A DNA stretch of 64,000 nt from Astropecten irregularis. Its lineage: Eukaryota; Echinodermata; Asteroidea; Paxillosida; Astropectinidae. Each line of letters begins with the position of its first letter. The stretch's first letter is position 1. The position numbers and the translations under genes are program-made. Location of the stretch: NCBI GenBank assembly GCA_963971285.1, contig OZ020246.1:19265217-19329216 (forward strand), written 5' to 3'. Shown piece after piece: positions 7,760 to 58,000 of this stretch. The notes under the pieces were generated by a model. That model searched no databases. It had not been told where the DNA came from and worked only from the letters and a program-made list of their open reading frames with translations.

Positions 7760-8466
7760 CTACATGCCCAACCACATATTACATCTTCTAAAGGCTTCCT
7801 TGCTTTTATCCAGATCAATGTAAGCAGCGAAGAATACGACAGTCGTGCTAGTGTCATTCCGACATTTGGACAAGTTTGGATAAAACGGAAAGAAGTATCC
7901 ACCATTCGGGAAATTCTCACTGTTGAGAAGCTTGAACTTGAGGTCCTGAATGAACCTTTTCGTGAGCAAGCGATTCATGACGTCTTGGGCCGGTTTCTTC
8001 TCCTGTGTTAAGCGACCCACCCACTCTGTTACAAAGGCTAGGGTTCGATTCGTCGGCTTAAAGTAGGCCAGTCCTAAGTTGAAGATCCGTGGCCTGTCCT
8101 TGGTCAGCGCGAAGTCAAAATCCCCGTCAAAATACGGAAATGGATCCTGGAACCAATAGGCGTCGCAGCGGACCAGGAAAACCTCCAGACCCTGCTTCAG
8201 GTATTGGAGTATGGACCCCGGCATCGTCCCTGCGCCCAGCTTAAGGACTCGCAAGCCCAGGTTTTGGCCTGACAAGGCTTTGTAAGAGGCTTCATCTTCG
8301 GCGAAGATTGTTACGTTGGGGCGGGCTCCAGTTTTCTCAATACTCGCCAAAAGGTTAGGAGCAAAGGCTACGCGTTGCGCGTCGGTTGATGTCAGGACGA
8401 CCACCTGCCGTTCGATAGGTCCCCGTCCGTTTGGAAGTTGGCTCTTGTGCCCAGATGAAGTGTCAC
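7760..8466 (-). CDS. Transferase B exon 2 (catalytic domain)
   Basis: The frame is open upstream of position 8404 as far as the acceptor and encodes a 20-residue stem, so the internal GTG is not a start. It contains the altered RCDAYW site and ends at 7760. Confidence 0.85.
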
Positions 8467-8693
8467 CTGTGGAGATGATTTAAAATATTTATATTATGAA
8501 TATGAATATCAAATATCCAGAGCAGGGCAGGGCAGGGCAGGGCAGGGCAGGGCATAGGGATATAGAAGACCAGACCACAACAGATCTTATCGGAATGAAA
8601 TGTTTAATATTATTATCTGTGTTTAATATTATTATATACTGTACCTGTCCTGAGAAACACAAGCAGAGATAGGGCCACGAAGATGAATGCCAT
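7760..8693 (-). CDS. Type II membrane nucleotide-diphospho-sugar transferase (paralogue B), 2 exons
   Basis: Paralogue of the gene at 237-2240, with the same architecture. Exon 1 is 8645-8693 and exon 2 is 7760-8466; the phase-1 join gives 251 residues. Residues 1-16 (MAFIFVALSLLVFLRT) are a signal anchor, followed by a short polar stem and the catalytic domain from about residue 37. Shared blocks include 'LQYLKQGLEVF', 'DPFPYFDGDFDFAL', 'QDVMNRL', 'NSENFPNGGYFF' and 'CNMW'. The metal-binding DxD has changed: DADLYW of paralogue A aligns with RCDAYW here (R116, C117, D118), so the first Asp is lost. The enzyme may be inactive, metal-independent or of altered specificity. The domain is otherwise intact and open, so it is not an obvious pseudogene. 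Confidence 0.85.
8522..8555. repeat. (GGGCA)n microsatellite
   Basis: About six copies of GGGCA lie in the 178-bp intron of transferase B. Confidence 0.9.
8645..8693 (-). CDS. Transferase B exon 1 (signal anchor)
   Basis: ATG at 8691-8693 opens 16 hydrophobic-rich codons plus one base before a GTAC donor. Joining to the acceptor at 8467 (CTCCACAG) restores a Gly codon. The start is fixed by the absence of any other anchor-encoding ATG next to the donor. Confidence 0.8.
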
Positions 8694-38286: not shown

Positions 38287-41200
38287 CTGCAGGGGAACAA
38301 ACAAAATTGGACTTCTAGCTGAAATAATTATGCACTGCCTCATTTTCGGCCGACTTTTTCTTTCGACCAAGATTTATCATAATATAATTATAGTTCCTGA
38401 CATCGGAAATCTCTGTTGTTTTTCAAATGTTTCTTCGACAAATTGTAACCCTAATTCTACATTCCTTCGGTCAAGAAAATAGACCGCCAGATGTTGGCAT
38501 CGCGTCTTTAAAGAAAAAGTCTGGTTCCCCGTCCTGAAGATTCCTTTGACCGTGTCCAAATTGTGCACGAGGCAGTCATAGCGGCTGCAGCCTTACCACG
38601 CGCGTGTAATTTCAGAACTTGACCAGGTTAGACCATTCCGTACACGACCCCAAACCGCGCCCGCATTTGCATAATTTTCATGTAATTGTTTGCTAATATG
38701 ATTGATTATTTTACCATGTAGAGCCCAAACTGAGTCCGTCAAGATTGTGTTATGGTTTCAACATAGGAACAGAAGCTCCGTACGGTAATAATTATGCCTC
38801 ATCATGCTCCGCCACAGTACCCAAAGCATGGCCGTACGATTATGACACGCGCAATTATTAACATTTTTGTTAGGAAAAACTTACACTTACACGGCACCGG
38901 TAATTCGTATCGAACTCTTTCCTTTTTTCTGTCAATTTGTCGCAATGCGGTGGTATACAAATTTACTTTGACGTGGCTTTTGGATTTTTCCAGGGTTTAA
39001 CTTTTGGCCTGTATAGTCCGAGTAACTTGGACCCTAAAAATCGCCTTTTTTAAAAATGGGCACAGAGACCAGTGTACAATTTGAAAAACCAAGATGGCTG
39101 ACCCAACTGACACTGGGCTCATGAATAGGAGGTCTCTGTGCCCATTTTTAGGGGGGAAAATGATCTTTTCTTCAAAAAATGTGAGTAAACCTTGTCCTTA
39201 TTGGAATCTTCAATTCTCCCTTGGTCTATAGCTGGCCGCATGAGCAGCGGCGTAGCTACGGGGGGGGGGGGGGGCCTGGGGGGGGCACGTGCCCCCCCCC
39301 CCCACAAATTCGGCGTGCCCCCCAGGTGCCCCCCCACAAAATATCGTTGGTATAGAAAAAAATAAGCGTTATCTGTAGGGCAAGATTTCTATAAAGGAAA
39401 TAAAAACAACTTAACAGCTTTTACTGTTCCAAAATGATATTTTTTACTATCAGCAAATGTTCCTGAGCCCTTAAAACCCTACAGTGAAGAAATCTGTGCA
39501 ACATTTCGGTGTAAAAATGCAATTTTCTTACGCGCTTACGGGGCGGTTGCGAACTTTTCAAAACAGCCCATCTGCCATTTTGTCTGGTTTGGCTAGTTAG
39601 TCTGGTCCCCAGATTGAATTTCTCCCGCTCAAGAGTTTTGGATTAAAAAGAAATAATGAAGTAATAATATAAATAAATGGATACATTTATCGGAACAATT
39701 GCTTCCAAAATAAGGCTCAGATTGCACCAAAGAATATCTAAAACCCCTGAGCTTCCAGGGCCCTTAAGCGGGCCCTGGACCCCGGCCGCAAGGCTTTCGC
39801 GCTTATCCGTGATTTTCCAAGGAGCGTGGAAATAAAATACGTCAATTCAATAGCGACGGGTGCGTTTCGGGGCGATCAAAGCTAGCTAATGTTGTCTTCC
39901 CCCTCTTTTTCAGCTCATTTGGAGTATTTCTGTATCCCTTTTACTTAATTTTTTTCTGTTTTTTTTTCTTTTCTTTTTTTCTTTTTTTTTTTGCTTGAAG
40001 AAAAGGTTGCCCTACGCCCGTTGGATCCGCCCCCCCCCCCCCCGCATTCCTCATATTTTGCAAATCTCCAGTTTTGAAAAAATTCCCGGTGCCCCCCCAC
40101 AAAATTCCAAGGCCCCCCCAGTGCCCCCCTGCTGAAAAAATCCTAGCTACGCCGCTGCGCATGAGACATTTTAGGATCGTTTTGGAGGTGAAATCATAGG
40201 AATTTGACTCAGGGTAGAGGCAAAAAGGAGCTCTAGCTTGCCACTCAAATGCAAACAAGGTACTTGGACCCTACTATCGCCAGATCATGTCCAAATGTTT
40301 AAAAAGGCGATTTTTAGGGTCCAAGTTACTCGGACTAAGGCCTATAGGGCCTTTTACGAAATGAGGCTATAGGCTTTGGGATTTATTGTGCTACCGCCAT
40401 TTTGTGTCCTAAATGAAATGGCTTGAGCCTTTATTCGGCTTCGTCATTGTACCGGCCAATCTCTTCATTTCGTTTTGGGGGCCTCAAACGGCGGGAGCGT
40501 CGAAAAAAGTACCGAAATTCGGTTCGATCACAGTCGAAGAATTGCCGACTCTTTTTAGACATTGTCCGAAACGGGTTTCCAGAGCGACGGCTTAGCCCTG
40601 TCCGCACTGGTCTTTTTTTTCGGGGATTTAACCGAGCCGATGGGTAAATGAAAAATGGGCAAATATTACCGGTGTCCGCACTTGGAATTTTGATTCATCT
40701 CAGGTAACTTATAAACCGTGAACATACGGAAGAATTACCGAGCTGACAATAAGCTCATGCAGGTACCCGACTCGCACTTTCCGCACTGGACTTTTCGTCT
40801 CGGGTAAAGTGTCTCGGGCATTCTAACCGAGCAGAAGTTGGCCGGTAGAAATACCCGCGCGGCTCGGGCAAAGTAACTGAGGTGTAGACTTCCTGACACG
40901 TCCGCACTGGACTTAAAATGGGTAAAGTACCCAGCGTCTCGGTTACTTTGCCCCCAAAAAGTCCACTGCAGACAGGGCTCTAGGTCTATTGGCCACGGTC
41001 TCCATGTATTTCCAATGAAGCGAATACCTAGACCTAGACAACAATCTTAAGTTCACGGCCCACTCATTAATGGGTCCAATACATTTTGAACCCCATTATA
41101 ACTGAAATTATGACATCTGCGGGAATGGGCTTACGTCCACACTTCGTCACCGTATCCGACCAGCCAGGCCAAGAACCTGCCCGTCACGTCCCTGGCTGGG

Positions 41201-44200
41201 TTCATGGGGGCTCCGGCGTTGTGGCCCCACGACAGGATGATGATGGACACGCTCAGGCCAATGAAAAACGGCTCCATTCCTTTGGGCGGTTTGGAGTTCC
41301 TTTCATCGACGAAGACCAAGGTACAGTGCAGTAAAAGACCCGTGTTGAGTATCTGTACGAACAAACAGTGCATATAGTATGCACTAAAAACTGGTTTGTA
41401 CCATAAGGAACCGTGATAACTACATGTATTAACCACAAGGGAAACAAAAGAGATGAATGGAGAAAAATTTACTTGAGCGGGATTCCAACCAGCGACCTCC
41501 GAAATACAGTACCGGTGCTCTAACCATTGGGACACCACCAACATTATAATAGGGCTGGGTAGCTCAGTTGGTAAGAGCGCCGGTATATTCTAGAGGTCAC
41601 TGGTTCGAATCCCGCTCCAGTCAATTTTTCTTTGTTCACTCTTCGTGATCAGCCCAAAATTGTTTTGGCGATTAAAAAGTTCCACATTGGGGATGTTTCT
41701 ATAAATGATGTGGATTTTCCAGCGAGCAAGCAAGCAATTTTTCAACCGGTTAACCTGAATCACTGAAATTAAGTGGATTCATACGATTCAACGATTCATA
41801 CCTGTTCTGCGACGCCGACCCAAATACCGAAGTATGGTTGAGGGTAGGTACAGTAAATTCCACCCGTGCCCGTAGGACCAAACACGGTCCGATTGCCCCC
41901 GTCAAAATCGTCAATTGCAGCTGGGAAACGAAAAGATGAGAGAGTTGAATTTGAACTACCGATCAACAAACTTCTGTTCCCCTTGAAATCGCATTCCTTC
42001 CTGAAAAACACAAGGAAGTTCCAACCATCCCGACAAATATTTCGACCGGGACTTCTCATCGAAGGAGAGGCAGTGCAGTTTAAAGGTAGATACTTTGGTA
42101 AGAAACCAAATCAGAAATGTTCACAGATTTACGTATAACTTGCAGGATATGAGGATTGTGGTGGTAGAAACATACCATTAACATTTTTCCGCCTAAAATG
42201 GTGTATTTATCCAGAACTTAGAAAAACAACGACCGAAAATCTTTCTGATCTTTTAAAAGATCAAAAATATAAAAAAAAAGACTTAAGAAATACCGTGGCT
42301 GTTTTTTACTGTTTTCTCAAAATAAAAAATGGGCACCGTATGGGACTGAAATTTTCACAGATGACTGTTACTGTATCTGTCTTGATATTTTTGCCCATGA
42401 ATCTGTATTTCTTTGATAAAAAACCAAAATATGATACTACCTTAAAGGTAGTATCATACTTTGGTAAAGGTGACAGAAAAGCTGTGGTCTGTTCATCATT
42501 TGATTTGTCAAAATTTGAAATAAAAACAAACCTGTGAAATTGTCAGTGCAATTGGTCATTGCAACCAGTAGAAAACAACGAAAAACCGTTGCAATTGTTA
42601 CGCCAAATATTTTGAGGTAACTGTAATTGTCAGGTTTTAATCTCGAAGATCAAATCTGTTTTGGTATTTTGTTGTACTCATTTCTGAACAATACAGCATT
42701 TCAGGTAGTACAAGTATAACGGTATATGTTTGTATTGCAGAGCTATCTTTACCCTTTAAAAAAATAGGTCAATTTGTGAACATGTCTGTTTTGGTTTCCT
42801 ATACCAAAGTGTGGTAATCAAGGTACCGTTATGGGCAATTCTCGCATAAATATGCAAATAGAAAGTGAAATTAAATTAAGAAACAAAAATTATTGTATAA
42901 TTTTTATACAAAGTTTGTGACAAGCCACCATGGACAAAATCTAGGAGAGGAGACAGCAGTGCCATACTATCAAGATATTCTCTAGTTTTGGCCTTCGGGT
43001 CAAGTTTTTCATCGTAAAATCCTACGTATATTAAATTTCACTTAATTCTGACTCGAATACAATGCTTTCTTTTCAAGCCTCCAAAATACTCCAACCTTTC
43101 GATCGCCAGCATTCGAGTGGAACAAAATCACAAGCGCTTCCACTGTGATGGGATTCGAACCCAGCTCTTCGAGCTCAACACGGTCAGGCTATGGGGTACC
43201 AAGTTATTAGAATTACTATACTTATACTTATACTTATACTTATACTATACAAATTATGATCACTGACATCAGCATGGCTTCTATAATAATGACTTACGAT
43301 AATAGATTCCGTAGACCGTGGCCGCCCCTGCGAACGCCCCTAGAAGCTGGGCGGCAACCCACAGCGGAATGCGCCGCCAGGGAAACTTCCCCACCGACGC
43401 CAGGCCCAGTGTGATGGAAGGATTGATGTGGCCACCTGTAATGTGTGATTAAAGGTAATGTCATACTTTGGTTTTTATCAAAGAAATACAGATTCATGGG
43501 CAAAAATATCAAGACAGAAACAGTAACGGTCATCTGTGAAAATTGCAGTCCCATACGGTGCCCACTTTTTGAGAAAACAGTGAAAAACAGCCACAGTATT
43601 TATTAAGTCTTTTCTCTTTTATTTTTAATCTTTTAAACGATTTTTGGTCGTACCCTATAAGTTATACGTAAGTCTTTGAACATTTCTGTTTTGGTTTCTT
43701 ACCAAAGAATGATACCACCTTTAAGACACAGGGTCATAATGATTATTAAAGGTATAATTTGGAATTTAACTCCGGACCGCGAGCATTTTGCGTCTCTCCA
43801 TTTCTTCAACTAAAAATTTGTTGGTGCATGCTGCAATTAGTACTTACTCCGCAAGTCCCGCCTCAGCTTTCTTTCATCTCGATATATCAAAGATCAAAAT
43901 AATCATTTTGGCTGGTGTTGCTGCCTGTATAGTTTCTTGTAATAATTATTCTGCTTTGAATAGGGGGATCGGGAATGAGCTTTGATTTAAACGAACAAAC
44001 CACAACCTGCATTTTTAGATGACGGGGCGAAGTTTGAGCCGGAAACTGTATACCAGTAAATAAAAAGGCTCAGTGGGCCTCTATGGGCCTTTTTGAAACA
44101 GAGGCTCGAGCTCGATCTCAGACTCAGGCTCAGGCTCAGGCACCGGCTGAAAATATAGGTCGTGGTTTTTCATTGAAGCTGAAGCTCTGTTTTCTTTATC

Positions 44201-47200
44201 AAACTAGAGAGGAATAGCGAGATTTTGCGAGAATACACTCGAAATTACGACTTAATGGAACTTGAAACCAAGTCGAAACGTGGGCCATAACTTCTGCAGT
44301 GATAGGCCTAGGCCTACCCTCGGATACAAAAGTCCGTCAGAGTTAGCCACGGCACCGTACGGCGGTCTGTATCGTTTGAAGCCACGGCTGATCCGTTGTA
44401 AGTTCACGTCGACGACCACAGTTTCCAAACTTTGAACCTTCAGAGTTCATGATCTTCATGAACTTGGACTTTCAAATAAGGCCTAAACAAACAATTTCCT
44501 TCAAAAGGCCGCGACTATTAGGGTCAAGTTTTTTATCTTGATCAGATATAATTCATTATTTTTATTTCGTGATGATGGAATTAAGGTAGTACATGCATCA
44601 TTGTACCTGAAACCCCCAAGCCAGTGTAGATCCCAAAGGCCACGCCCATCCCTGACGTCAGAGCAGTGGAGATGCGTGTCCCGGATGTCCATCCGCTGAC
44701 GATACCTTGGGCGAGTCCGCCATCGACAAACAACTGTATACATCGCAAGAAAATACAAACACAAAACTGCATTGAGTCAAGGTTGACGCAAGCAGGGAGA
44801 TTCTCAGTCACTGAGATAATTTCAAAACAATAAATTCATGATAGGTAGTATTATACTTTGGTTTTTGTCAAAGAAATACAGATTCATGAGCAAAAAATAT
44901 CAAGACAGATACAATAACAGTCATCTGTGAACATTTCAGTCCCATATTACGGTGCCCACTTTTTGAGAAAACAGTGGGAAAATAACGCCCACGGTATTTT
45001 TCTAAATCTTGTCACCGTTATTATTGATCTTCCGAAGATCAAAATTGGTCATTGGTTTTACTCTTTTCTGGATAAATACACCATTTCAGGCGGAACACTT
45101 TTAACGGTATGTTTCTACCACCACCATCTTCATACCCTGAAAGTCATACGTAAATCTGTGAACATTTCTGTTTTGGTTTCTTACCAAAGTATGATACTAG
45201 TAAAGTCCACAACAAAATAATTGTTTTTTTTTTTAGCATTTTGTTTATAACCTGGTCTCTTGGAGAGGCAGTCTCCTTTTCATTTCTATATCCTCTCTAG
45301 TCTTCTCATTACCTCCATCCTGCATCATGGGTTATACTCCCCCATCTTCTTGAAACCTTCTTCCAAACCCCTTTTCATCCCTGGGGCCAATTTCATAGAG
45401 CTGCTTAAGCACCAACATTTGCTTAAGCACCAATAATCTTGGTAAATAAAATCAGTATGCCCGCCAAAACTCCTTGTGAATGTTATGCTCAGCAAACAAT
45501 GACCACAAGTTGGCACAAGCAGTAAACGTCACATGAAAATTTGGTTGATAATCATGTTTGATCAAGGGGGATTTTTCATGCTTAAAGGTAGTACCATACT
45601 TTGATAACAAACCAAAACAGAAATGTTAACAGATTTACGTATAACTTTCAGGGTATGAAGAAAAATTGAAGATGGTGGTGGTAGAAACATACCGTTAAAA
45701 TTCTTCCGCCTGAAATGGTGCAAACAATTACGGCCGAAAATCTTTTTGATCTTTTAAAAGATCAAAAATAAAAGAGAAAAGACGTTTTTCACGAGTTTCT
45801 CAAAAAGTGGGCACTGTATTGGACTGAAATTTTCACAGATCACTTCATATTTTTGCCCATGAACCCGTACTTCTTTGACAAAAACCAAAGTATGATACTA
45901 CCTTTAAGCAAATAATTTTGCTTAAGAAGCTCATATGAAATTGACTTATGTCCCCCTCAGCCTATACGCATCTCATCCCTTACTACGATTTTTTTTCAGA
46001 ATGGTCCTGCTAGGATCGAAACGTCAGGCCCACCAATCTCCGGCCATAGCATTTTAGTTATGTAGTCTTACAAGGGCTACCAAAATTTTCTCTATACTAT
46101 ACTTTGTTATCGTCCTCCTTAAATTTAATCTCGCCTATACCCCAAACATTTTGTTCCCTTCACCTGATGACCACACTTGTCTACCTCCATCTTCTCTTTA
46201 TGTAGTAAAATTTCCCTCATCCTATTCCATGCGTATTGCATGCTTTCCCTGTTTCCCTGGTCACTCTGTCACCTTTTGTTCCGATCCTCTCATCTATGTG
46301 TATGTGTACCATTCAGTCTTCTGTGAGGACGGCCATACACTGGCCGGAACGTCCAGACTATTCTCACCGGTTCTTTTCAGAACCACACATCTATAAAAGA
46401 GATTTTACATGGTGTCTCCGCAAGCTCACTTTGTTACGTTCTTCCACCATGCAAAGCTTCAGATACTACTTATGTATCTTAACTTGCATGTTATTGTCCA
46501 CTTGTCAGCCTTTGAGAAAGATCCTACTACTAGGATCGAAACGTCAGGCCCTTCCAACTCCAAGCACAATTCATTCCAGATGTCCTCCGTATTTTATAAT
46601 TCAGACAGTATTCTGAGTCCTGACAAGCCTTCTGACAAACCTTCATACGCATGCAATCCTGTTCAAAACATTGTATCTCTGTAGGCCTATCTGTGTTTGG
46701 TATAACAAAAAATTAAGTAATGATTCTTGAATTGATGATTGATTGATTGATTCAATGGCTTGATTGGAGATACAACCGAGGACCTGACGTTTCGATCCTA
46801 GCAGTATCTTTCTCAAATGAATTGAATTGACATGATTGATCTGTCCTAGTCAACACTTTAAAAAGTTGCATCCGTGATTTTGATTGGCTGGGTTTACACC
46901 ATGTGACTGTGCATTGATTATGACGTACTGAGCTTCCCCGGCTAATGACATGTCTGTATTAAAGGTTGTATCATACTTTGGTAAGAGACCGAAACAGAAA
47001 TGTTCACAGATTTACGTATAACTTACAGGGTATGAAGATGATGCTAGTAGAAACCTACCGTATAAAGTTTTCCGCATGAAATTGTGTATTTATCCAGAAA
47101 TTAGTAAAACAACAACCGAAATTCTTTTTGATTTTTTAAAACATCGAAAAATAATAAAAGAGAAAAGGCTTAAGAAATACTGTGGCTGTTTTTCACTGTT

Positions 47201-49921
47201 TTCTCAAAAAGTGGGCACCGTATGGGACTGCAATTTTCACAGATGACTGTTACTGTATCTGTCTTGATATTTGTGCCCATGAATCTGTATCTGTATTTCT
47301 TTGATAAAAACCAAAGAATTATATTACTTTTAAGGGCTATGGCTTTCTGCTTGACTTGCTACAACCCTGGGAAGGGCTCCTATATTAAGGGCCCAGGCTA
47401 AGGAGAAACGGCAAGGGATTAGTGGCTTAAGTCATAACATTCATGCTTGGTTCAGCAGCCAAAAACGTTGAGCTTGAAACCATTTTTATAGACATGGGAC
47501 CGGGGGAATTATCGTAGAGGGGATGTAAATAAATCATTGGCGCGCTGAGGAAATAAATGTTCAGCAAATCATGATTTAGCGCACATTCAAGTTCCTGAAA
47601 GCTCTGGAAGTCGGTCATTAATGCCGGATTGCAAACGCAGCAGACATTCATGTTTATACATTATTGTATAATACGCGCCAAATGTCACAACATTTGTGCA
47701 GAATTAAACATCTCCATTAGCACTCAATTCAATGACATCCACGTAAAGGCAATGCGAAAACAAAATAAGGACAGATTTTACTTTAAATGTTTGCAGTTGT
47801 CTATTCGGCTTGATTGTCTGTGGTTATGTTGATAGGCCTATTTTGTTGCTTTTTTTCTTTAGCAGTGAGGCTCACTGCACAGTGAACACGACATTATATT
47901 TCGGCCTTTTTATCAAAAATGTTCAGCTTCTTAGATGAAACGGAAACAAATTAGGCATGTCATTTAGTATTTTTTTATTAAGTACACATTGTTATTTTTA
48001 CTCTTTGTTTTACAATGCCGGTTAGTAAAATCTTGCAATTTTCATAGATGATTGTTACTGTATCTGTCCTGATATTTTTGCCCATGAATCTGTATTTCTT
48101 TGACAAAAACCAAAGAATTATATTACCTTTAATGAATTTATTGTTTTGAATTACCTAAGTGAATGAGAATCTCCCTGCTTGCGACAACCTAGACTCAATG
48201 CAGTTTTGTGTTTGTATTTTGTTGCGATGTATGCAGTTGTTTGTCGATGGTGGACTCGCCCAAGGCATCGTCAGCGGATGGACATCCGGGACACGCATCT
48301 CCACTGCTCTGACGTCAGGGATGGGCGTGGCCTTTGGGATCTACACTGGCTTGGGTGTTTCAGGTACAATGATGTACTACCTTAAGTCCATCATCACGAA
48401 ATGAAATTATTTTGTATCTGATCAAGATAAAAAAAATATGACCTTAATAGTCGCGGCCCTTTGAAGGAAATTGTTTGTTTAGGCCTTATATTTGAAAGTC
48501 CAAGTTCATGAAGATCATGAACTTTGATTGTTATTTTTACTCTTTGTTTTACAATGCCGGTTAGTAAAATCTTGCAATAATGGACAATAATTTTTGTATT
48601 ATTATGATATATCGGGACACTTTCCCGTACCGCAAAAGCTTCAGCCTTCTGTTGAGATTTAATTGAAAAAGGGATATGAATCATTTGTAGTCACTTAAAG
48701 GTATACAGTACAGGATTGGTACCCCAACAGAAATGTTCACAGATTTAAGTATAACTTTCAGGGTATGACCATGGTGCTGCTAGAAACATATCCATTAAAT
48801 ATTTCCGCCTGAAATGCTGTATTGATCTAGAAATGAGTAAAAACCCTCAAAGACCGAAAACCGTTTTGATCTCGTGATTATGATTTACTAGAATAATTGA
48901 GTCTGAATTTTCGCTATTTTCTCGTGACTCAGATGTCCGATCGAGCTCAACTTTTCACAGGTTTATTATTTCATGTATATGCTGGATCGGACGAAGTGTG
49001 AGTGCTGTTCTGTGACTTTAACCAATGATGTGTTATACCTTTAATGTAGCCCTTATTCTAAAATATCATTTTCTAGCTATACACTAAGGATGCATTATAT
49101 TTATAGGCTTATCGCAGCAAGAAGATGGTGTTGATAATCTTAATTGGGGTCTGTTGGTTCCATTTGTGGTTGTTTTCACTCGGCCATGAAAAAATGCAAA
49201 AGCACAGCAATTAAAGGTAGTATCCGTACTTTGGTAAGAAACCAAAACCGAAATGGTCACAGATTTAGGTGTAACTTTCAGGAGTGAAGATGGTGCTGAT
49301 AGAAACCTACCTGAAATGGTGTATTTATCCAGAAATTAGTAAAACAACGACCGAAAATCTCTTTGATCTTTTTAAAGATCAAAAATAAAAGAAGAAAGAC
49401 TTAAGAAATACTGTGGCCGTTTTTCACGATTTTCTCAAAAAAGAGGGCACCGTATGGGACTGAAAACGTTCACATTATTACTGTTACTGTATCTTCCTTG
49501 ATATTTTGACAATGAATGTGTACTTCTTTGACAAAAACAAAAGTATGATAATATTACCTTTAAGGCGCTAGGCCTAGACCTACTTGATGATGTGATCGAA
49601 CTTCTTACGAAACATCACTGAGCAGAATGCGTGCATCAGTACGGACGTCTTCTGAGCGCCACTCACGGTGTGTAAACCTCAGTCTCTACTACTGACAAAT
49701 AAATCACAGCCATCGTACTCAATACCCCCCCCCCCCCTCCCCTCTTACCCCTTTCCCCTTCCCGGCATAATAATCTTCGAAACAAACATAATGTATAAGT
49801 ATGATACTTGACTTACAACCATTATGAAAGTGCCGGCCAGTTCGGCAAGCATGCCGCGGGCCAGGTCGCTCCGTACGGTGAAGAACCGACCGAGTGAGCT
49901 AGTGCAAGCACGGCCCGGCAT
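38082..49921 (-). CDS. Aquaglyceroporin, 6 exons, complete
   Basis: Membrane channel of the MIP family for water and small solutes such as glycerol. Exons in transcript order: 49817-49921, 44607-44733, 43298-43435, 41802-41920, 41135-41352, 38082-38286; joined 912 nt, 303 residues. Exon number and phases match vertebrate AQP3-type genes. Glycerol-facilitator hallmarks are the longer loop between half-helices, GPTGTGGIYCTYP (about residues 138-150), and Asp after the second NPA-Arg (MNPARD, 213-218). The first NPA is NPS (N82-P83-S84, GGHINPSIT). The last helix WWWVVATFVPLVGAICGAAF is followed by a short acidic tail. AQP3/7/9/10-type is clear from the loop and Asp; the precise orthologue is not. 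Intron 1 is 5.1 kb and holds an inverted copy of exon 2. Confidence 0.93.
39013..40338. mobile_element. Outer element with inverted TAGTCCGAGTAACTTGGACC ends
   Basis: TAGTCCGAGTAACTTGGACC and the following CTAAAAATCGCC are found in inverse at 40300-40338 (GGCGATTTTTAGGGTCCAAG ... CGGACTA). GGCCTGT and GGCCTAT flank it, suggesting a 7-8 bp duplication. It contains the complete hAT-like element 39245-40157. Lies in aquaporin intron 5. Confidence 0.7.
39245..40157. mobile_element. hAT-like element with 8-bp target duplication, nested
   Basis: The ends CAGCGGCGTAGCTACG and CTAGCTACGCCGCTG are inverted, and CGCATGAG occurs on both sides (39237-39244 and 40158-40165). Sub-terminal regions are long G or C runs around GTGCCCCCC. 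It is 913 bp with no transposase ORF. The target lies inside the 39013-40338 element, so this is the younger insertion. Confidence 0.8.
40593..40982. mobile_element. 390-bp MITE with AGCCCTGTCCGCACTGG ends
   Basis: The left end AGCCCTGTCCGCACTGG mirrors the right end CCACTGCAGACAGGGCT. Interior repeats of TCGGGTAAAGT and CCGCACTGGACTT occur several times. Target duplication is unclear. Confidence 0.65.
41135..41352 (-). CDS. Aquaglyceroporin exon 5 (second NPA)
   Basis: Encodes ILNTGLLLHCTLVFVDERNS through GHNAGAPMNPARDVTGRF to DEVW. The second NPA motif is at 41194-41202. Its Arg is the usual selectivity-filter residue and the next Asp marks glycerol facilitators. Confidence 0.95.
41440..41545 (-). 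mobile_element. tRNA-derived SINE, head-to-head with the next
   Basis: Minus-strand B box GGTTGGAATCCCGC and A-box remnant near GGTTAGAGC, with the SINE body reading CATTTCTTTTGTTTCC-like sequence beyond. It meets a second SINE head at about 41550. Confidence 0.6.
41550..41655 (+). mobile_element. tRNA-derived SINE
   Basis: GGGCTGGGTAGCTCAGTTGG gives a near-perfect A box and D arm, and CTGGTTCGAATCCCGCTCC the B box, followed by TTTCTTTGTTCACTC. Acceptor ends pair (GGCTGGG with TCCAGTC), but the anticodon stem does not, so I reject a working tRNA. Confidence 0.75.
41802..41920 (-). CDS. Aquaglyceroporin exon 4
   Basis: Encodes AIDDFDGGNRTVFGPTGTGG and IYCTYPQPYFGIWVGVAEQ, the extended loop typical of aquaglyceroporins. 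Confidence 0.93.
42080..42445. mobile_element. TTAA-family A MITE
   Basis: Bounded by TTAA at 42080 and 42442, complete in order. Directly followed by another copy that shares the TTAA. Confidence 0.8.
42442..42838. mobile_element. TTAA-family A/B hybrid MITE
   Basis: Starts TTAAAGGTAGTATCATACTT like family A, but its interior (GGTGACAGAAAAGCTGTGGT, CAATTGGTCATTGCAACCAG) is diverged and B-like. Ends near CAAAGTGTGGTAATCAAGGT. Confidence 0.5.
43135..43205 (-). mobile_element. tRNA-like SINE head
   Basis: The minus strand has B box GGGTTCGAATCCCATC and an A-like block with GGTACCCCATAGCC. Without a proper D arm it is not a convincing tRNA. Confidence 0.45.
43214..43248. repeat. (ACTTAT)n microsatellite
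   Basis: Five copies of ACTTAT, 50 bp from aquaporin exon 3. Confidence 0.9.
43298..43435 (-). CDS. Aquaglyceroporin exon 3 (first NPA, here NPS)
   Basis: Encodes GHINPSITLGLASVGKFPWR and RIPLWVAAQLLGAFAGAATV. The codon that should be Ala (GCN) is TCC, at 43416-43418. All other residues around the motif look normal. Confidence 0.94.
43449..43724. mobile_element. TTAA-family A MITE, reversed, internally deleted
   Basis: 276 bp between TTAA sites, 14 bp from exon 3. The central AAAGATC palindrome side and the ATCCAGAAATTAG block are deleted. Confidence 0.75.
44088..44215. mobile_element. Partial MITE of the 'GGCTCAGGCT' family
   Basis: CAGGCTCAGGCTCAGGCACC then CATTGAAGCTGAAGCTCTG, as in 5786-6024 and 62117-62325. 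The right end is absent. Confidence 0.55.
44448..44935 (-). repeat. Source arm of the inverted duplication
   Basis: This segment (exon 2, its flanks and one end of the family A MITE at 44842) is the counterpart of 48040-48526 in opposite orientation. Similarity stops abruptly near 44448, after the GAAGATCATGAACT block. Confidence 0.85.
44607..44733 (-). CDS. Aquaglyceroporin exon 2
   Basis: Encodes LFVDGGLAQGIVSGWTSGTR and ISTALTSGMGVAFGIYTGLG plus VS, forming helices 1-2. It begins in phase 0 and ends with one base. This is the copy in the right orientation to join exons 1 and 3. Confidence 0.94.
44842..45200. mobile_element. TTAA-family A MITE, reversed
   Basis: Runs from GGTAGTATTATACTTTGG to CCAAAGTATGATACTAGT. 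Terminal TTAA sites are degraded on both sides. Confidence 0.7.
45381..45945. mobile_element. 'GGGCCAATTTCATAGAGCTG' element with nested TTAA MITE
   Basis: The left end GGGGCCAATTTCATAGAGCT mirrors the right end AAGCTCATATGAAATTG. The family A MITE at 45582-45907 is inserted in a CTTAAGC site inside it, so the order of insertion is clear. Confidence 0.7.
45582..45907. mobile_element. TTAA-family A MITE with clean TTAA duplication
   Basis: GC-TTAA-AGGTAG on the left and CTACCT-TTAA-GC on the right. This copy best shows that TTAA is the duplicated target. Confidence 0.85.
45995..46040. repeat. 'TAGGATCGAAACGTCAGGCC' module
   Basis: GCTAGGATCGAAACGTCAGG, usually preceded by TTTGAGAAAGATCCTGC. 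Also at 46505-46556, 46780-46815 (reversed), 59755-59805 and, more diverged, 20937-20985 (reversed). Confidence 0.65.
46959..47333. mobile_element. TTAA-family A MITE (well preserved)
   Basis: Bounded by TTAA at both ends, complete order of family blocks, with one CTGTAT duplication near the right end. Confidence 0.8.
47988..48578. repeat. Exact 52-bp direct repeat around the exon 2 copy
   Basis: Positions 47988-48039 and 48527-48578 are identical over 52 bases (ATTGTTATTTTTACTCTTTG ... TAAAATCTTGCAAT). They border the inverted copy exactly, as a target duplication would. Confidence 0.9.
48040..48526 (+). pseudogene. Inverted copy of aquaglyceroporin exon 2 and flanks
   Basis: Copy of 44448-44935 in opposite orientation, inside intron 1 of the same gene. 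The exon copy (48236-48362) differs from the original at three positions, all synonymous Gly third bases, so it encodes the same 42 residues. It keeps an AG acceptor (ATGCAG) and the GTACAA donor. No plus-strand partner exons were found around it, so it cannot make an aquaporin alone. Near-identity also extends into the intron flanks, so recent origin or gene conversion explains the match better than selection. Confidence 0.85.
48695..49044. mobile_element. TTAA-family B MITE (best copy)
   Basis: TTAAAGGTATACAGTACAGG at the left, TGTTATACCTTTAA at the right, TTAA on both sides. It shares CAGAAATGTTCACAGATTTA with family A and has its own right half (GTGACTCAGATGTCCGATCG, AAGTGTGAGTGCTGTTCTGT). 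Confidence 0.8.
49211..49563. mobile_element. TTAA-family A MITE
   Basis: Bounded by TTAA; complete though diverged (GTATCCGTACTTTGGTAAGA ... AAAGTATGATAATATTACC). Confidence 0.75.
49817..49921 (-). CDS. Aquaglyceroporin exon 1
   Basis: Encodes MPGRACTSSLGRFFTVRSDL and ARGMLAELAGTFIMV, the N-tail and start of helix 1, ending phase 0 at GTAAGT. The ATG at 49919-49921 is the first in frame. LAELAGTFIMV matches the helix 1 signature of the family. Confidence 0.9.
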
Positions 49922-52900
49922 GATTATATACCGGACCCTAGCTCAGATGCTGCTGCTACTGAAGATGAAAATGAAGATGATCCAGGGGTCCTGATTATTA
50001 TATTCACGGATCGTACGTCCCGCAGCTGGCAGGTATGTTCATTCAGTACACCGGATCGATCAGTGTAGCCCACCCAAGAGCCAGGGCAAAGTCACAAGAG
50101 CTCCGGACAGTGGCTTTCCATGTCCCGATGAACCCATACACTCAACACTGGATCAGGATTGTTCCGGCTGGATATGCGCGCGTGTGTATAATGATAATGA
50201 TCCACTAGAGGTGGGCGGGCCGCCACATTGCCGACAGATCTCTCGCAGTAACTGCAAAGAACATTCACTAAACGGTTATAAATAATATAAATGCTGAATA
50301 AACACTTGCAGGTAATAGATGTGTAGACTGATGGTGTGCTTGACACATCCATAACACATACTGTACTCGCCCTCTCTATCACCGTGACACGCGTACTAGA
50401 CGTTAGCCGCGACTCTAGCTCTCTCCTAGTTCCTCCATGGGCTGACACAAACAGGCAAAGCTGTAATCGTTACAGGTGAACAAACTTCAAGGCCAACAAG
50501 ATTAACCATGAACTACAAGCCCCGGTTAGCCTGACGGAATACTCCTATACGAGCCTCCGGTGCTCTGTTAATTCAATAAATTGCCTCGCGACTGAAATCC
50601 CATGTAGAACGATCACAGAATGATGATCAGGAACGGGGCCCAGGTGAAAGTACGTCTTCCCCCGTGTGATGTTTACAGCAGTGCAGCCATTTGAGGTGTA
50701 GTCTCCAAATTAAGGCTGACGTATGAATGGCAAGAAAATCATCTTCTTCTTTTCCCCTGCCGTTACTACAGTGACAGCCCGTGCATATTACATAATCGAA
50801 ACCCAAGCATGTGACGGTCACATGAGGTCATGGTCAGGTCACGAGAAAGAAGATGCGCATAGATAGTTACTCGGTCACGATTATGGATTCAAGCACATCC
50901 TCAGCATCGGGTGTATGTAGGACTTGAATCAAGACTACAACATCCACGGGAATACAGTACAGCAATGATTTATGCCCGTGTGCTAGTAATAATCCACCGT
51001 ATGACCATAGACCGTGACAAGGTTAGGCCGTTTCTGCTGCTTATCTTTGGCAAAGTGGGAATAATTATTCAAGTTCAACGACAGCTATTCTCTTTCGCAA
51101 ACTGAAAAAAACAAATCCCTCACACACGCATCGCACAGGCCGCACTGCCGATTCTAACCTTTGTACATGCATAATACAGATGATGGATATCACTCGCAAT
51201 GAATAATATCATAATATTTACAGGCAAGCCGGTTTATAGTTATCTCCATGACCTTGGAGGTTATCACGTACAGTAGGGCAAACGTCTTGATAAGTTATTA
51301 ACACATTGAACATCCTTCGCCCCCTCATCGTCTGCCACAGGTCATGTAATAGATCATGGTCAATATTTGTTGTCAATAATATGGCACAAGTAATGAAAAG
51401 ACTTCTTTATAGCCTTCGTTATTTGCCTATAGGTATTATTCTCATATCCATCGATATGCATTGTGTCGGGCCTACTCGGTGTATTTGTGTACTTGCATTA
51501 TTTGTATGTCAATAATGAAGTCAACATGTCACACGGATTTAAAGGTAGTATCATACTTTGGTTTTTATCAAAGAAATACAGATTCATGGGCAAAAATATC
51601 AAGACAGATACAGAAACAGTCATCTGTGACGATTTCAGTCCCATGCGTTGACCACTTTTTGAGAAAACAGTGAAAAACAGCCATAGTATTTCTTAAGTCT
51701 TTTCTCTTTTAGTTTTGATCTTTTAAAAGATCAAAAAGATTTTCGGTCGTTGCTTTACTAATATCTGGATAAATACACCATTTCGGGCGGAAAATTTCTT
51801 TCTTGATATTTTTGCCAATGAATCTGCATTTCTTTGGCAAAAAAAAAACAAAATATGAAATTACCCTTAAGCTGAAATTTCAGTAACCCCCCCCCCCCCC
51901 CCCCCCTCCAATTAAGAAATTAACAACAAAAAAGAAACTGCCAAATAAAACACAAAATACTCCTCAGAATAGAGCGACTTTCATGCTTCATAGCATCAAA
52001 AGATCGACAGAGTTCAAAAGCACAAACTCTTCCGGGAATAACAATAGTTCCATACTGTTTTTTAACAAAGACCTTGCTACCGCGTAAGGGATCCAGAATT
52101 ATTATTTTGTAACATTCGGCAGACATACAAATAATATATTCATGCATGAGCTCTAAGATGGAATTTTGTTTTTGCCTTTTGAGTTGACTGCCATACACCC
52201 GTGTAGGCCTATTATACAATGGTTCATTATGGGCTTATTTCTATACATTCACATTGGTTTGCAAAGTACTCTCTGAAAGAATTATTATAATTACGTGTAT
52301 ACACGGGGAGTGATAACATTGGTGCTTAATTTTGGGCCACCAGAAATGATCTGCCGATTCTGTAACCGATAGTTTCATCTATAGTCGACTCCGAGGTCGA
52401 AAACACAGGATATCGAGATTCGAGAAGGACACCCGCAAAATTATGGTATGGATTATTCGAGACCGGACTAGTCTCGATATTTCAAGGCAGATAGTGATGT
52501 AATCTTACATTAAATTGGCGCATCACGATCTATTGTTTTACCATATAATTATACCATGGATGAGCTTTTTGGTTTATTTCCGTGCAGCGAACCCTGGGAA
52601 CTGAAAACGTTTTTCAAAAATGGTTAGCGCATGCGCAAGTGACATACTCGTGTGATTGTGCCTACGTACCACATACAGATTTTGTTTACTGTACAGTATG
52701 AATAAATACAGATGTACGAAATTAATTTTAATTCAAGCATCTGAAAACAAAGTTTAGTTCTCAATTTTACAATGCAATACACGTACATCGTTTGAGGTAA
52801 AACTTGGGAAAAAAGCCTGAAATTGTTTTCAGTGCTGGAGAACAATTATGCAACTTATTCGTACCGGATGGGTCAATTTTCGATTGCACTAAATTGCATT

Positions 52901-53692
52901 TTCATGCCATAATAATGTCTCACACTACAACATGTTTATCAGTCTAATCATTAGCTTCGCTCTGTTGAGCTGCCAAAATCATTTCAATTTACACAAGGCA
53001 AAAGCAAGGGAATTATCCTATGGTTACCTAAAAAGTACAATACACACTGGCATAAGAACAGCTTAAAACGTCGTCACATTCATTAGCCAATCAGATTAGG
53101 GAAAGTTAAAATATATTATACCAAACACTATAATGGCCAATCACCTTTTTTTTTTCCAATTTCCAGGCTCTTCCAACGCCAGCAGGGTTGTAATGTTTGT
53201 AAAAACTTTCTGTTATGTTTCCTCCTTAATGTCCCTTTACACATGAGAACGTTTAATATCTCACACTATACAACGTGCACTATGTTCATCAATGTAATCA
53301 TAAGCTTCGCTCTGTTGAGCTGCATTAATAAAAGACTGAATAGGAATCATCCAGATTCAAAGTTTTCAATTAAATTGAATAGAAAAAAACGTGTGGAATG
53401 AAATGTACCGAACCGTCTATATAATAATCCTAATCATTGCTATTTTGATTTATATTCATCTGTTTAATCTTTTTGTAACTTGCTTGTAAGACAGTTCTTT
53501 CTTTCTCTTTCGTTTTTGTACTTTTTTACTAGTTCAGTGTATTTATTCGGAAAAAAAAAACTTGGAAAAAAATCCCCGCCCATGATAAAAATGTATTTAG
53601 CGCCCTCTAGACAACGACTGACCAATATATCCCATAATATGATTCTCACGCATGCGCTATTTCATTATCTTTTATGCCATCGCGGGGTAAAG
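49922..53692. other. Divergent region between aquaporin and TAF4
   Basis: Expected to hold both promoters. I see no coding exon. A family A MITE lies at 51539-51870 and a C run at about 51887-51906. The frame at 50092-50448 (minus) lies where a 5' UTR of the aquaporin would be and shows no domain. Confidence 0.5.
51539..51870. mobile_element. TTAA-family A MITE, reversed
   Basis: TTAA at 51539 and 51867; order of blocks reversed; part of the left half is missing after ATTTCGGGCGGAAA. Confidence 0.75.
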
Positions 53693-53700
53693 ATGGCGGG
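53688..53700 (+). promoter_or_regulatory. YY1-like motif over the TAF4 start codon
   Basis: AAAGATGGCGGGC contains the AAGATGGCGG core seen in YY1 sites downstream of many housekeeping transcription starts. It overlaps the ATG at 53693. Function is inferred from the motif only. Confidence 0.35.
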
Positions 53701-55063
53701 CACAACGTCTATCGAAGATATTCTTTCTTCTGTGGTGGACGAAACTGCAGTTAGTGCGTTGATTGGATCGCTCGAGTCTAAATTAGCAGCTGGAAATACT
53801 TCTTCGACGGCTAGTTCGCTCGATGCGAGTCCAGTTGGCTCGAATCATGTCAGCAAACCTGTGGCAACCTCGGGGGACGTGCAGGGGAATTCGAGTGCGG
53901 CACATCCGAACTCATCGCAGCAGATCAACGCGGTACGAGATGGACCCAGTGCAGCTACCGGTGGTGGGAGCCCGGCGGTCGTGGTGGCCGCTGCTACCTC
54001 TCAGCCTGGCACTGGCAGCGCTCAGGTTGTGGACAAGTTGCCTTCTACGGCTCCTAGGCCTGCCGAAGACGTTCAGCTGGCCAGTGAGCGGAAGGTTAAT
54101 GCCGGGGGAGCTCCGGTAACGGACAAAAAGGACGGCAACGGGAGTCCTTCGATCTCGACGGTGACCCGCGTTGGTGCCAGCACTCCCCTCACTGGCAGCA
54201 ACAACAGCCCCGGTAATTCCTCAATTTCCACACCCACCACGTGTGTGCGGATTATCACATTACCAACTGGTAAGAGTGGAGCTGTCTTGGCCAGCACAGA
54301 CATTGCAGATGCCAGCGTAAGTATATCCCACAACAAGGCCGCGAAGAATGCCGTACTGCCCAATGCAAGAACAGTTGTGAAAACCGTTGCTGGTACGCAA
54401 CAACAGTTGCAGGGACAGTCTGCCGTTGCAGTCACACAGACTTGCAGTGCTTTGACTACGGTCACGAGTAGCGTCCTAAGCACTCTGTCCTCGTCACCAA
54501 GCGTTGGCGTATTAAGAGGGCAGCAGCAGGTGATTAAAACACAAGTGCCCGCTCAGGCCGGCGGTCTCAGTGCCACCGGTGGCAAGCAGATCACCACGGC
54601 CATAGTGGCATCAACCACGCTTCCAACAGCGCCATCGCACACGATCACCTCCACCACCACACAGCAGCCACAGATAGTCCTACGTGCGGCGCCCACCTTG
54701 CAGGTCCCCAGTTCCGGTGTGAGCAAGCCAAGTGCTTCCAGCAGTTCTGTTGTGACGCTGGCCGCGACCACCGCTTCCCAGGTCAAACTGTCCGGTAGTG
54801 GGACCCCGGGTCCTCACAGTGTGGGCATTGCGCCCCAGTTGCAACAGGTCCGACTAACGTCCCCGCAGGTCATTGCGCCAAGAACTCCCGGGGGCACCGT
54901 ACAATTCCGCCTCCCACAGGGAACGTCCCTGCCTCCCGGTGTTATGTTGATCAACAAAGACGGTAATATCCATGTGGTGAACAGTTCTATTGGCCCCGGG
55001 GGTCAAATTCAGCATTTACCTGGTGGAGCAGTACCTGGTGCTGTAACATACAGACAGGTGCAG
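53693..55063 (+). CDS. TAF4: TAF4 exon 1 (N-terminus and low-complexity region)
   Basis: 1,371 nt, 457 codons, rich in Ser, Thr, Ala, Val and Gln. It ends with ...GAVTYRQVQ before GTACGT, phase 0. The region between residues 35 and 450 is the poorly conserved coactivator part; [18 protein letters not shown] resembles the conserved 'LPPGMVLVRSENGQLL' block of vertebrate TAF4. Confidence 0.93.
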
Positions 55064-58000
55064 GTACGTATGGTGGGATGGTCCATAATCTTCAAATTTT
55101 GAAGGAACTGGCAGTGTATATTTTGCCGGCACCGACATTCTTCTGATTGGCCTATTCTCATCATGTTGTGCCGGCTTTCCTTCTCTAAATGTTATTTAGA
55201 GGTACATTCTAATACTGGAAATTAACCACTCAGAGTAAGGGAACATCAAAACAGTGTGCTGTGTCTGTAGAAAGAATGCTGGTGCAGGCAAAATATGCAC
55301 TGTCTGTTTAAAACATTAAAATAGAGAACTTGGGATAGTTTTTTGTTTTACGGCTGCCTGACAATATTAATCCCAGTTACTAACTCTGAACTGAGGCGCT
55401 GTACTCCTCAATATTACCCAAACAACTTATGCAGACGTTGCATACTCTGCCGACGTTGCATGCAATGAAATTTCAAGCAGATATGTGAAGTCTTTGTTGT
55501 CATTTGGGGATATTTTTGGTCAGTTGTTTTGCAGGAAGTCTAAAATTAGCATCAATTCTCTATAATGTAGAATTATCTGGGACGCTAGTACAACCGGGGA
55601 AGCCCATAATCAAAAAGTGTAGTCTTTATGATTTAAATGGTTGTTCACTGTACAGTACATGGGGGCATGGGCCTATTTTATTGGTATTGGTTGGTTTTGA
55701 AAATATTTTGAAACTTGGAATGACCCATTATGTGTTCCTATGGGATCAGGCATCATTTCTGAGGTAATGTGCCATTGTGCATGATGCATCGTGATGTTTT
55801 AAAGTCGTTGGGCTTAAGACCTTACCAGGCAAATGAAGTGGACACATCTTATTCTTAACATGTAATAAGCCCAACAACTTTAAAACATCACAATGTTCAA
55901 ACCAAACTTCCACACAATACATGTAGCTCTGAGAGAAAAAACAAAGCAACTTGTAAATACACAAGCAAATGACGTCACAGTGTAGGTATAACCTTAAAAA
56001 AATGATCAATAAGCCAAGCCCCACGCCATTTGTTTCTGACCAATCGCAGTCGTGATTCATGTCCATTGAACGTACAATGAAGTTCGATGGGCATGAGGGC
56101 GTGTACAAAGCGTGCGACTGGAATGTGTACTTGTGGCATTGGAGAGGAACACGCGTTCATTGCCCACATGAGCAGTGGGAGGGGCTAGCTGGATCAGTCT
56201 ATTCACTGTCTCGTACATGGCATCAATGTGATACAGCACCGCTTGAAAACAACCGAATATCCCAGTCACTGTCCCGTCTGTGATTGGAACACTCATGCAT
56301 ACATTATTGTTACTGCTCAATTTATCCACCTTCATTTTTGTCCGAAGCTCCGCCCCCTTCCCCCAACAGCACGTGCTACTCATATTATTACATCCGGGGT
56401 CGATTTCACGAAGCCCAACAATCGATCGTAACTCGAGATACGAAGGATAACCCATCGTATTCTACGTAGGGCTGCAATACAATGCATCATAAGTCCTACG
56501 ATTGATAGTAAGTTATGATGAGTTTGGTGAAATCGACCCCAGGATTACTAGGGACTAAGGGTAAGGGGGCTTAGGCCTATTTGTGAGCAGTATCATTTGG
56601 TTTTGTCTATCCCCTACCTACGTGTGTTAATTTAGGTAGGCCTACCATGGCAATTTGTGTTGATCAACCCTGAAATTCCAATGATAGGAATACTATTGAA
56701 GTATTAAAATTGAATTCCTCTTATTGAAACCGGTTTGAGAGGGGAGGTTTCATAAACCGATATACACTAATCATTTCATTTTCAACTTTCTATCACTAAA
56801 ATCATTTCGTAGCCACTGAAATGTTTATATTTTGGGAGACAGATGTGAAGCAAGAAATAATTGTTGAAATTTTTTCGCAATTTGCATTAGTGGAGATTTG
56901 TTTGATCAATGGCGAGTGTGTTGGATCTGTTGACGTTGAGAATGGCAATCAGCCGGTTGAAACAGATGTGTCGGTTATGCAGAGTATCCGACCCATATTG
57001 TAATACAGATCAGAGTATAAGCCAATGATTCCTCATTGTACATGTTGTATGGAACAGGACATCTATGGGAGCCCATAGTTGACATTAATTGTCATAATAT
57101 TTCTTCTTTGCCTTCCTTGACAGCCCGGATCATCGGTGGTGCAACGGTCTGGTACCCAAGTCACGTCCGTCGTCCAGCCAACAATACGGCAGAACGTGGG
57201 CCAGCTGCTGAACACCACCAATGCAACCATCAGCCAGCTGAAGGGCGGGGCCCAAGTCATGGTGGGCGGGTCCCCAGTCACTTTCCTGTCCAAGTCAGGC
57301 GCGCCAGGCTCGCCCTCGATGACCATCAGCAACCAAGGGGTGCACTCCAGCGCGGCCAAGATGGTGGCCGTTTCGGCCGGCAGCACGGTGTCCGGGACGC
57401 AGCGTGTGGTCAGCGCCACACCGACGGCGGGCCAGCCGGTCATCATCAGTGGACAACCCCAGCCGATACCCATGTCCCAGTCGGCCATGGAGAACGTCAA
57501 GAAGTGTCGGAACTTTCTGACGACGCTCATCAAACTGGCCTCCAACGGCAACCAGCCGGCTGAAACGGTCAAGAACGTTAAAGAGCTGGTCCAGAATCTC
57601 ATTGTGAGTTGAATGATTTGGTATACCATGTGGTTTGACCCATGCTGCTTGCTCAATACTCGGGCATCCAAGCAAAGACTTGGTTTGTTTGTTTGTGTGG
57701 TTTTTTTCTATGCAGATGCACTTGAAATGAGCATTACATGAAAATGCTCAATGCAAAGATAAAGTGTAAAACTTGTGTAGTTGTACAAAATTTCATTAAA
57801 AAAAAATTGGAAAAAAAAATGAAACATTTCAGTCTTGAAGATTGGTGTAAACATTTATGGGGAAATTTGATTATGGCATACAATTTTGGGCACCTTATGG
57901 CGGCTTGTGTTATAAGTGAAGAATCAATTATCACAAAAAAACACATCCCTGCCCTGATGTTGTAACCATCCTTCCAGGCCTTGAATTTGGTTGGTTCTGA

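What the first reader, a model, noticed from the sequence alone, without database searches (positions are those of the whole stretch)
48040..48526. Aquaporin exon 2 copied in reverse into its own gene, with a 52-bp flanking duplication
About 490 bp around exon 2 (44448-44935) are present again, inverted, in intron 1. The exon copy keeps splice sites and differs only by three synonymous Gly third bases. It is bordered by an exact 52-bp direct repeat (47988-48039, 48527-48578). No known transposon end fits. The 52-bp repeat suggests insertion of a DNA segment into a widely staggered break. The pre-mRNA could form a stem of over 350 bp between intron 1 and exon 2, which might mask exon 2 or be edited.
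Basis: partly seen in the sequence, partly recalled or inferred. Interest (0 to 1): 0.85.

Follow-up and report, generated by a model that had tools for sequence, protein, structure and literature searches.

The report
Inverted exon copy from DNA repair
A 487-base piece of an aquaporin gene, including its whole second exon, was copied backwards into the gene's own first intron, most likely during repair of a broken chromosome; the event looks real but is of a kind already described in human DNA.

Summary
Window 48040-48526 is an inverted copy of 44441-44932, the exon 2 region of an aquaglyceroporin-like gene on the minus strand (453 of 483 aligned bases identical, 7 indels). An exact 52-bp direct repeat flanks it. 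The three exon differences are all synonymous Gly third bases. The best reading is a repair-mediated (templated) insertion at a widely staggered break: introns kept, no transposon or LTR ends, no poly(A), donor about 3 kb away, and 6-bp microhomology to a MITE at the left junction. Pace et al. 2009 describe 824 such proximal duplications in human DNA, including an ACSBG2 exon inserted backwards into an intron of its own gene. So this is a new member of a known kind. Three details are less usual: a 52-nt flanking duplication (4-21 nt in their table); a left end inside a MITE, resembling a neighbouring MITE more than the donor's own (suggestive only); and an insert about 6% diverged from its source while the 52-bp repeats are identical, which suggests a recent insertion copied from another allele. 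A regulatory role for the hairpin is untested. No related genome was available, so an assembly error cannot be excluded.

The parts
48040..48526 (+). Inverted insert: copy of 44441-44932 with a MITE end (48040-48132), intron 1 flank (48133-48236), exon 2 (48237-48363) and intron 2 flank (48364-48526)
   Evidence: Alignments
47988..48039 (+). Left copy of the 52-bp flanking direct repeat; its last 6 bases TGCAAT are microhomologous to two MITE copies
   Evidence: Identical to the right copy; MITE copies at 47215-47342 and 43440-43561 carry TGCAAT at this place, the donor's MITE carries TGAAAT
48527..48578 (+). Right copy of the 52-bp flanking direct repeat
44441..44932 (-). Donor locus (gene sense on minus): end of intron 1, exon 2, start of intron 2
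44607..44733 (-). Aquaglyceroporin exon 2, 127 bp, 42 codons plus 1 base, so skipping it would shift the frame
   Evidence: exon pieces 1-2-3 joined match MIP (Pfam PF00230, E 3.9e-23) and align without a gap to aquaporin-10 6f7h
48237..48363 (+). Exon 2 copy, same 42 residues, three synonymous differences
43299..43436 (-). Exon 3 (GGHINPSITL...); approximate ends
49817..49879 (-). 3' part of exon 1 (TVRSDLARGMLAELAGTFIMV); the exon starts further upstream
41134..41304 (-). Coding stretch of a later exon with the second box NPARD
   Evidence: MIP match
44845..45197 (-). Near-complete MITE-like element beside donor exon 2 (positions 12-371 of the 386-bp query); the insert holds only its terminal 93 bp
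46957..47342 (+). MITE copy 0.7 kb from the insertion site; possible first template of the insert's left end
   Evidence: Shares 3 derived bases with the insert, the donor's MITE none
48502..48524 (.). Perfect 10-bp stem with 3-nt loop ending 2 bp before the right insert boundary (9-bp stem at the donor, 44444-44464)

Best explanation
This is a repair-mediated, templated insertion. A break with widely separated nicks (about 52 nt) opened intron 1 near 48.0 kb. A 3' end finishing in TGCAAT annealed to the matching bases of a MITE copy and was extended. Filling in both 52-nt overhangs left the exact direct repeats. Shown: the copy, its orientation, the repeats, the microhomology and the hairpin sequence. 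Inferred: the break, the synthesis and the fill-in. I think it likely that the template was not today's assembled exon 2 but another allele (or a paralogue), and that the insertion is recent. A weaker inference is that synthesis began on the MITE at 47.2 kb and then switched to the donor's MITE through their shared sequence. The insert probably has no selected function.
For: Copy, orientation and exact repeats. Direction is exon 2 to intron 1: the MITE is near-complete beside exon 2 (44845-45197) and truncated in the insert, and the repeats flank the insert only. The left junction shares TGCAAT with two of 14 MITE copies; a chance match of 6 or more bases had frequency 0.0004 over 200,000 random window positions, and 3 or more (all the present donor gives) 0.028. 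The right boundary lies 2-3 bp past a perfect 9-10-bp stem; 0.5% of window positions lie within 5 bp of an edge of another perfect stem of 9 bp or more. Donor within 5 kb, length under 619 bp, microhomology and no poly(A) fit the class in PMC2671141. Breaks with 3' overhangs (43 nt in one assay) give tandem duplications, most spanning almost the entire overhang at a random site (PMC8355091, passages). Another-allele donor: 0 of 52 changes in the repeats against 16 of 263 substitutions plus 6 indels in the non-MITE arms (Fisher P 0.052 substitutions only, 0.016 with indels; 0.022 and 0.008 with the MITE part included), and no nonsynonymous change where 2.7 would be expected on an unconstrained copy (P 0.066; 0.034 at the rate with the MITE part included).
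Against: A target duplication was seen in only 6 of 39 inspected proximal human cases, and over all 68 inspected breakpoints it was 4-21 nt, not 52. A template switch that returns 52 bp upstream gives the same product without a double-strand break. The 6-bp microhomology is to other MITE copies; the donor's own MITE gives 3. The age argument rests on few sites and its tests are at or near the 5% line. Gene conversion between the arms could also keep the exon alike: a MITE pair in this gene shares 73 exact inverted bases. The two-template idea is weak: P 0.003 for that neighbour taken alone but 0.10 for any of 14 copies; the copy near 14.6 kb also shares 2 bases with the insert; another MITE pair shares 4; and 3 derived bases plus a 6-bp duplication of the 47.2-kb MITE are missing from the insert.
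Confidence: 0.6

Rival explanations
1. Replication template switching (MMBIR/FoSTeS type): a stalled fork jumped by microhomology to the inverted donor, copied about 490 nt, and returned 52 bp upstream of where it left, so the 52 bp were copied twice. No staggered break is needed.
For: 6-bp microhomology at one junction and at most 1 bp at the other; inverted donor a few kb away; exit at a hairpin. The product is identical to that of the best explanation.
Against: The return junction has almost no microhomology. Nothing in one sequence separates this from break repair.
Confidence: 0.27
2. Assembly or amplification artefact: a chimeric read or mis-joined haplotype created the inverted copy and the repeat.
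For: Inverted chimeras with short matches are known from whole-genome amplification (recalled); the genome may be highly heterozygous; no reads or second assembly were available.
Against: The insert differs from the assembled exon 2 region at 30 of 483 aligned bases, so it is not a plain re-use of the same reads; an exact 52-bp flank on both sides is not a usual mis-join product (judgement).
Confidence: 0.08
3. Mobile element or retrocopy that captured exon 2 (LTR-like, Helitron, Pack-type MITE, or L1-type insertion).
For: Direct terminal repeats resemble very short LTRs; the left end is MITE sequence.
Against: The 52-bp repeats run AT...AT, not TG...CA, and are not bordered by a further target duplication (sequence). 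The insert starts inside the MITE, not at its end. It holds introns and no poly(A). No other full copy lies in the window; the rest of the genome could not be searched.
Confidence: 0.02
4. Selected regulatory hairpin: the copy is kept because pairing of intron 1 with exon 2 controls splicing or editing of the aquaporin.
For: 455 predicted pairs between the arms; skipping the 127-bp exon would shift the frame; exon copy without amino-acid change.
Against: The lack of amino-acid change is explained by a recent copy of a functional allele. MITE copies in both orientations in the same introns would compete for pairing. No RNA data.
Confidence: 0.03

Closest known systems
Repair-mediated duplications of proximal chromosomal DNA (Pace et al. 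2009, PMC2671141), in particular ACSBG2 exon 7
   [quoted passage not shown] donor within 5 kb; length within 619 bp; microhomology; target-site duplication in some (6 of 39 proximal cases); intact reading frame; chimeric acceptors known (20 instances)
   Different: Flanking duplication 52 nt here against 4-21 nt there; host not identified; donor apparently another allele
Patch-mediated break repair with tandem duplication in rice (Vaughn and Bennetzen 2014; paper not held; known here from passages citing it and from recall)
   Same: Direct duplication at the break, with inserted nearby DNA in some events
   Different: The citing passage (PMC7407515) gives donors within 200 bp of the break for the insertion class and mentions short duplications from ectopic donors; here the donor is about 3 kb away and inverted
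Microhomology-mediated break-induced replication, templated insertions (e.g. PMC8421209, start of abstract in a search listing)
   Same: Template switch at microhomology producing a templated insertion
   Different: Mechanism cannot be told apart from break repair on one sequence

Membership tests
Proximal repair-mediated duplication (Pace et al. 2009) | Insert matches one donor within 5 kb on the same chromosome | tested here: met
   Donor 44441-44932, insert 48040-48526. Uniqueness was tested in the window only, and its left 93 bp are repetitive
Proximal repair-mediated duplication (Pace et al. 2009) | Breakpoints with microhomology (2-9 nt), filler, deletion or target duplication | tested here: met
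   6-bp microhomology to MITE copies (3 bp to the present donor) on the left and flanking duplication; the duplication, 52 nt, is outside their 4-21 nt range
Proximal repair-mediated duplication (Pace et al. 2009) | No poly(A)/poly(T) tract at an end | tested here: met
   Junction sequences read
Proximal repair-mediated duplication (Pace et al. 2009) | Empty site in a related genome | not testable with these tools
   No genome held for this window; repeat patterns gave no match in viral or prokaryote collections
LTR-type element | TG...CA terminal repeats bordered by a short target duplication | tested here: not met
   Repeats run ATTG...CAAT; outer flanks GTACAC and AATGGA do not match
Retrotransposed mRNA copy | Introns removed, poly(A) tail | tested here: not met
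   Intron flanks of about 100 and 160 bp are retained besides the MITE part
Cut-and-paste MITE carrying an exon | Both insert ends are the element's terminal inverted repeats | tested here: not met
   Left end is internal to the MITE, right end is donor sequence outside the MITE

The most novel reading that the evidence does not exclude
Dispersed MITE copies acted as landing pads. A broken end copied the MITE at 47.2 kb, and that stretch then gave it homology to invade the inverted MITE beside exon 2 and copy the exon in reverse. In this way an abundant short repeat steers which neighbouring exon is duplicated and in which orientation, and builds self-pairing genes that segregate as alleles.
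Probability: 0.2. Interest if true: 0.5.

Novelty: new member of a known kind. Interest (0 to 1): 0.33.

Why it matters
It is a clean, apparently recent example of a whole exon copied in reverse into its own gene, with both junctions and the source readable. It shows a longer flanking duplication (52 nt) than the human series. If the donor was another allele, the insertion may be polymorphic, and its effect on exon 2 splicing could then be compared between alleles in one animal.

Tried and rejected
Mobile element with captured exon: rejected because the ends are not element ends and no further target duplication borders the 52-bp repeats. Copies elsewhere in the genome could not be sought.

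Retrocopy: rejected because introns are kept and there is no poly(A).

Tandem paralogue in the window as donor: tblastn of pieces of four aquaporin exons found each once at 100% plus the exon 2 copy; the other rows had E-values of 0.12 or more. A paralogue outside the window is not excluded.

Other insertions of this kind in the window: among 59 direct-repeat pairs (exact 14 bp or more, spacing 80-1500, words occurring more than 6 times dropped) the test for a fully templated interior was met by this case, by many pairs inside the minisatellite near 32.4-32.9 kb, by one pair inside a MITE (44923/45154) and by one short local repeat (5223/5356). This is the only clear one.

Finding the host or an empty site: two repeat patterns gave 0 matches in viral contigs and one gave 0 in genome contigs; a text search for three repeat sequences gave 0 papers. 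The organism is not identified; a marine deuterostome is my guess from recalled repeat style only.

Literature: searches were search listings with starts of abstracts. I read the abstract and outline, sections 6, 7 and 10 and passages of PMC2671141, and passages of PMC8355091, PMC7407515 and PMC5730883. PMC12862219 was seen as the start of its abstract in a listing.

Two-template origin of the MITE part: kept only as suggestive.
Full report
Observation. The two 52-bp stretches 47988-48039 and 48527-48578 are identical. Between them lies an inverted copy of 44441-44932. Over the insert proper, 48040-48526, 483 aligned columns hold 30 mismatches and 7 indel events: MITE part 11 of 93, intron 1 side 7 of 104, exon 3 of 127, intron 2 side 9 of 159. 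The three exon differences are synonymous Gly third bases and both splice dinucleotides remain. An exact inverted run of 89 bp is the longest in the window.

The gene. The exon pieces 1, 2 and 3 joined in frame match MIP (PF00230, E 3.9e-23) and align without a gap to solved aquaporin-10 (6f7h, E 2e-22), with aquaporin-3 next. A later exon has the NPARD box. The gene is an aquaglyceroporin-like channel on the minus strand. Exon 2 has 127 bases, so skipping it would shift the frame.

Direction. A MITE-like repeat (ends TTAAAGGTAGTATCATACTTTGG) has many copies in the window. The copy beside exon 2 runs from 45197 to 44845 and is near-complete, while the insert begins inside the element and holds only its last 93 bp. 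With the flanking repeats around the insert only, the copy went from exon 2 to intron 1.

Junctions. The left repeat ends in TGCAAT, which also stands at this place in two MITE copies (47215-47342 and 43440-43561); the donor's own MITE has TGAAAT. A match of six or more bases occurred at 0.0004 of 200,000 random positions; the present donor gives three (0.028). The right boundary shares at most one base. It lies 2 bp past a perfect stem of 10 bp with a 3-nt loop (9 bp at the donor); 0.5% of the window lies within 5 bp of an edge of another perfect stem of 9 bp or more.

Which MITE was copied? Against the consensus of 13 other window copies, the insert has 6 derived bases in this part. It shares 3 with the MITE at 47.2 kb (one of them inside TGCAAT, which is also target sequence) and none of the 7 of the donor's own MITE. 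The insert's MITE part differs from the 47.2-kb copy at 6 of 93 bases and from the donor's MITE at 11 of 93 (10 of 91 in another alignment). The 6 of 93 resembles the 16 of 263 of the non-MITE intron parts against the donor. This fits a two-template origin, as in the 20 chimeric instances in human DNA. Against it: the chance of two shared bases outside TGCAAT is 0.003 for that neighbour alone but 0.10 for any of 14 copies; the copy near 14.6 kb also shares two with the insert; of all 105 pairs of copies, 6 share two outside the first six sites, and over all sites one pair shares four, more than the three here; and the insert lacks three derived bases and a 6-bp duplication of the 47.2-kb copy. 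Later gene conversion is another option.

Age. If all divergence came after insertion, the 52-bp repeats should differ too. They show 0 of 52, against 16 of 263 substitutions and 6 indels in the non-MITE arms: Fisher P 0.052 without indels and 0.016 with; with the MITE part included, 27 of 356 and 7 indels, P 0.022 and 0.008. A copy free of constraint should have gained about 2.7 amino-acid changes (P of none 0.066; 0.034 at the higher rate). Both are explained if the template was another functional allele or paralogue that had already diverged, and the insertion is recent. The start of an abstract states 3.2-4.2% heterozygosity in sequenced amphioxus species (PMC12862219, listing), so several per cent between alleles is realistic in some animals; the host here is unknown. 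No second aquaporin gene was found in the window with pieces of four exons. Gene conversion of the exon remains possible; a MITE pair in this gene shares 73 exact inverted bases.

Mechanism. Breaks with 3' overhangs (43 nt in one assay) give tandem duplications, most of which at a random site span almost the entire overhang (PMC8355091, passages); end-joining of breaks with protruding ends is proposed as a source of tandem duplications in mammals (PMC5730883, passages). Filling in a 52-nt stagger is therefore plausible. A template switch with return 52 bp upstream would leave the same product. I prefer break repair because the human proximal duplications were assigned to it by their junctions, but the two cannot be separated on one sequence.

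Known cases. Pace et al. found 824 proximal duplications of up to 619 bp. All 39 inspected proximal cases lacked poly(A/T); 6 of the 39 had a target duplication. Over the 68 inspected breakpoints, microhomology was 2-9 nt and target duplication 4-21 nt. [quoted passage not shown] The present case is the same kind, with a longer flanking duplication.

Function. The arms as RNA give 455 intermolecular pairs and -777 kcal/mol, against -130 and -109 for the arms alone. This shows that the hairpin could form, not that it does: a loop of about 3 kb separates the arms, and MITE copies in both orientations nearby would compete. I regard the insert as most likely neutral or mildly harmful (inference).

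Limits. No genome is held for the window, so reads, empty sites, genome-wide copy number and host could not be checked.

Noticed in passing
43449-51870 and elsewhere in the window: A MITE-like family of about 380 bp (ends TTAAAGGTAGTATCATACTTTGG, possible TTAA target) with full or partial copies in both orientations; one pair in this gene shares 73 exact inverted bases (43529-43601 / 47175-47247), a possible sign of recent activity or gene conversion.
   Followed up: partly
46364-46408: Match to the histone 3' UTR stem-loop (Rfam RF00032, 35.2 bits, cut-off 34) in intron 1 between donor and insert; I did not look for a histone gene there.
   Followed up: no
46007-46041, 46527-46561, 46779-46817: Three copies of a motif like CTAGGATCGAAACGTCAGGCC, two direct and one inverted.
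   Followed up: no
32409-32931: Minisatellite of about 31-bp units, open in more than one reading frame.
   Followed up: no
18051-18366: Tandem duplication of 158 bp, 144 of 154 aligned bases identical.
   Followed up: partly
25724-25796 (-) and 41553-41623 (+): Two weak tRNA-family matches (32.8 bits each, cut-off 29) that ARAGORN did not call, perhaps tRNA-derived SINEs.
   Followed up: no
57121-57612 (+): TAFH domain match, probably part of a TAF4-like gene; the upstream Ser/Thr-rich ORF 53468-55102 had no Pfam match.
   Followed up: no
237-1124 and 7760-8479 (-): Two reading frames matching nucleotide-diphospho-sugar transferase (PF03407), perhaps tandem paralogues.
   Followed up: no
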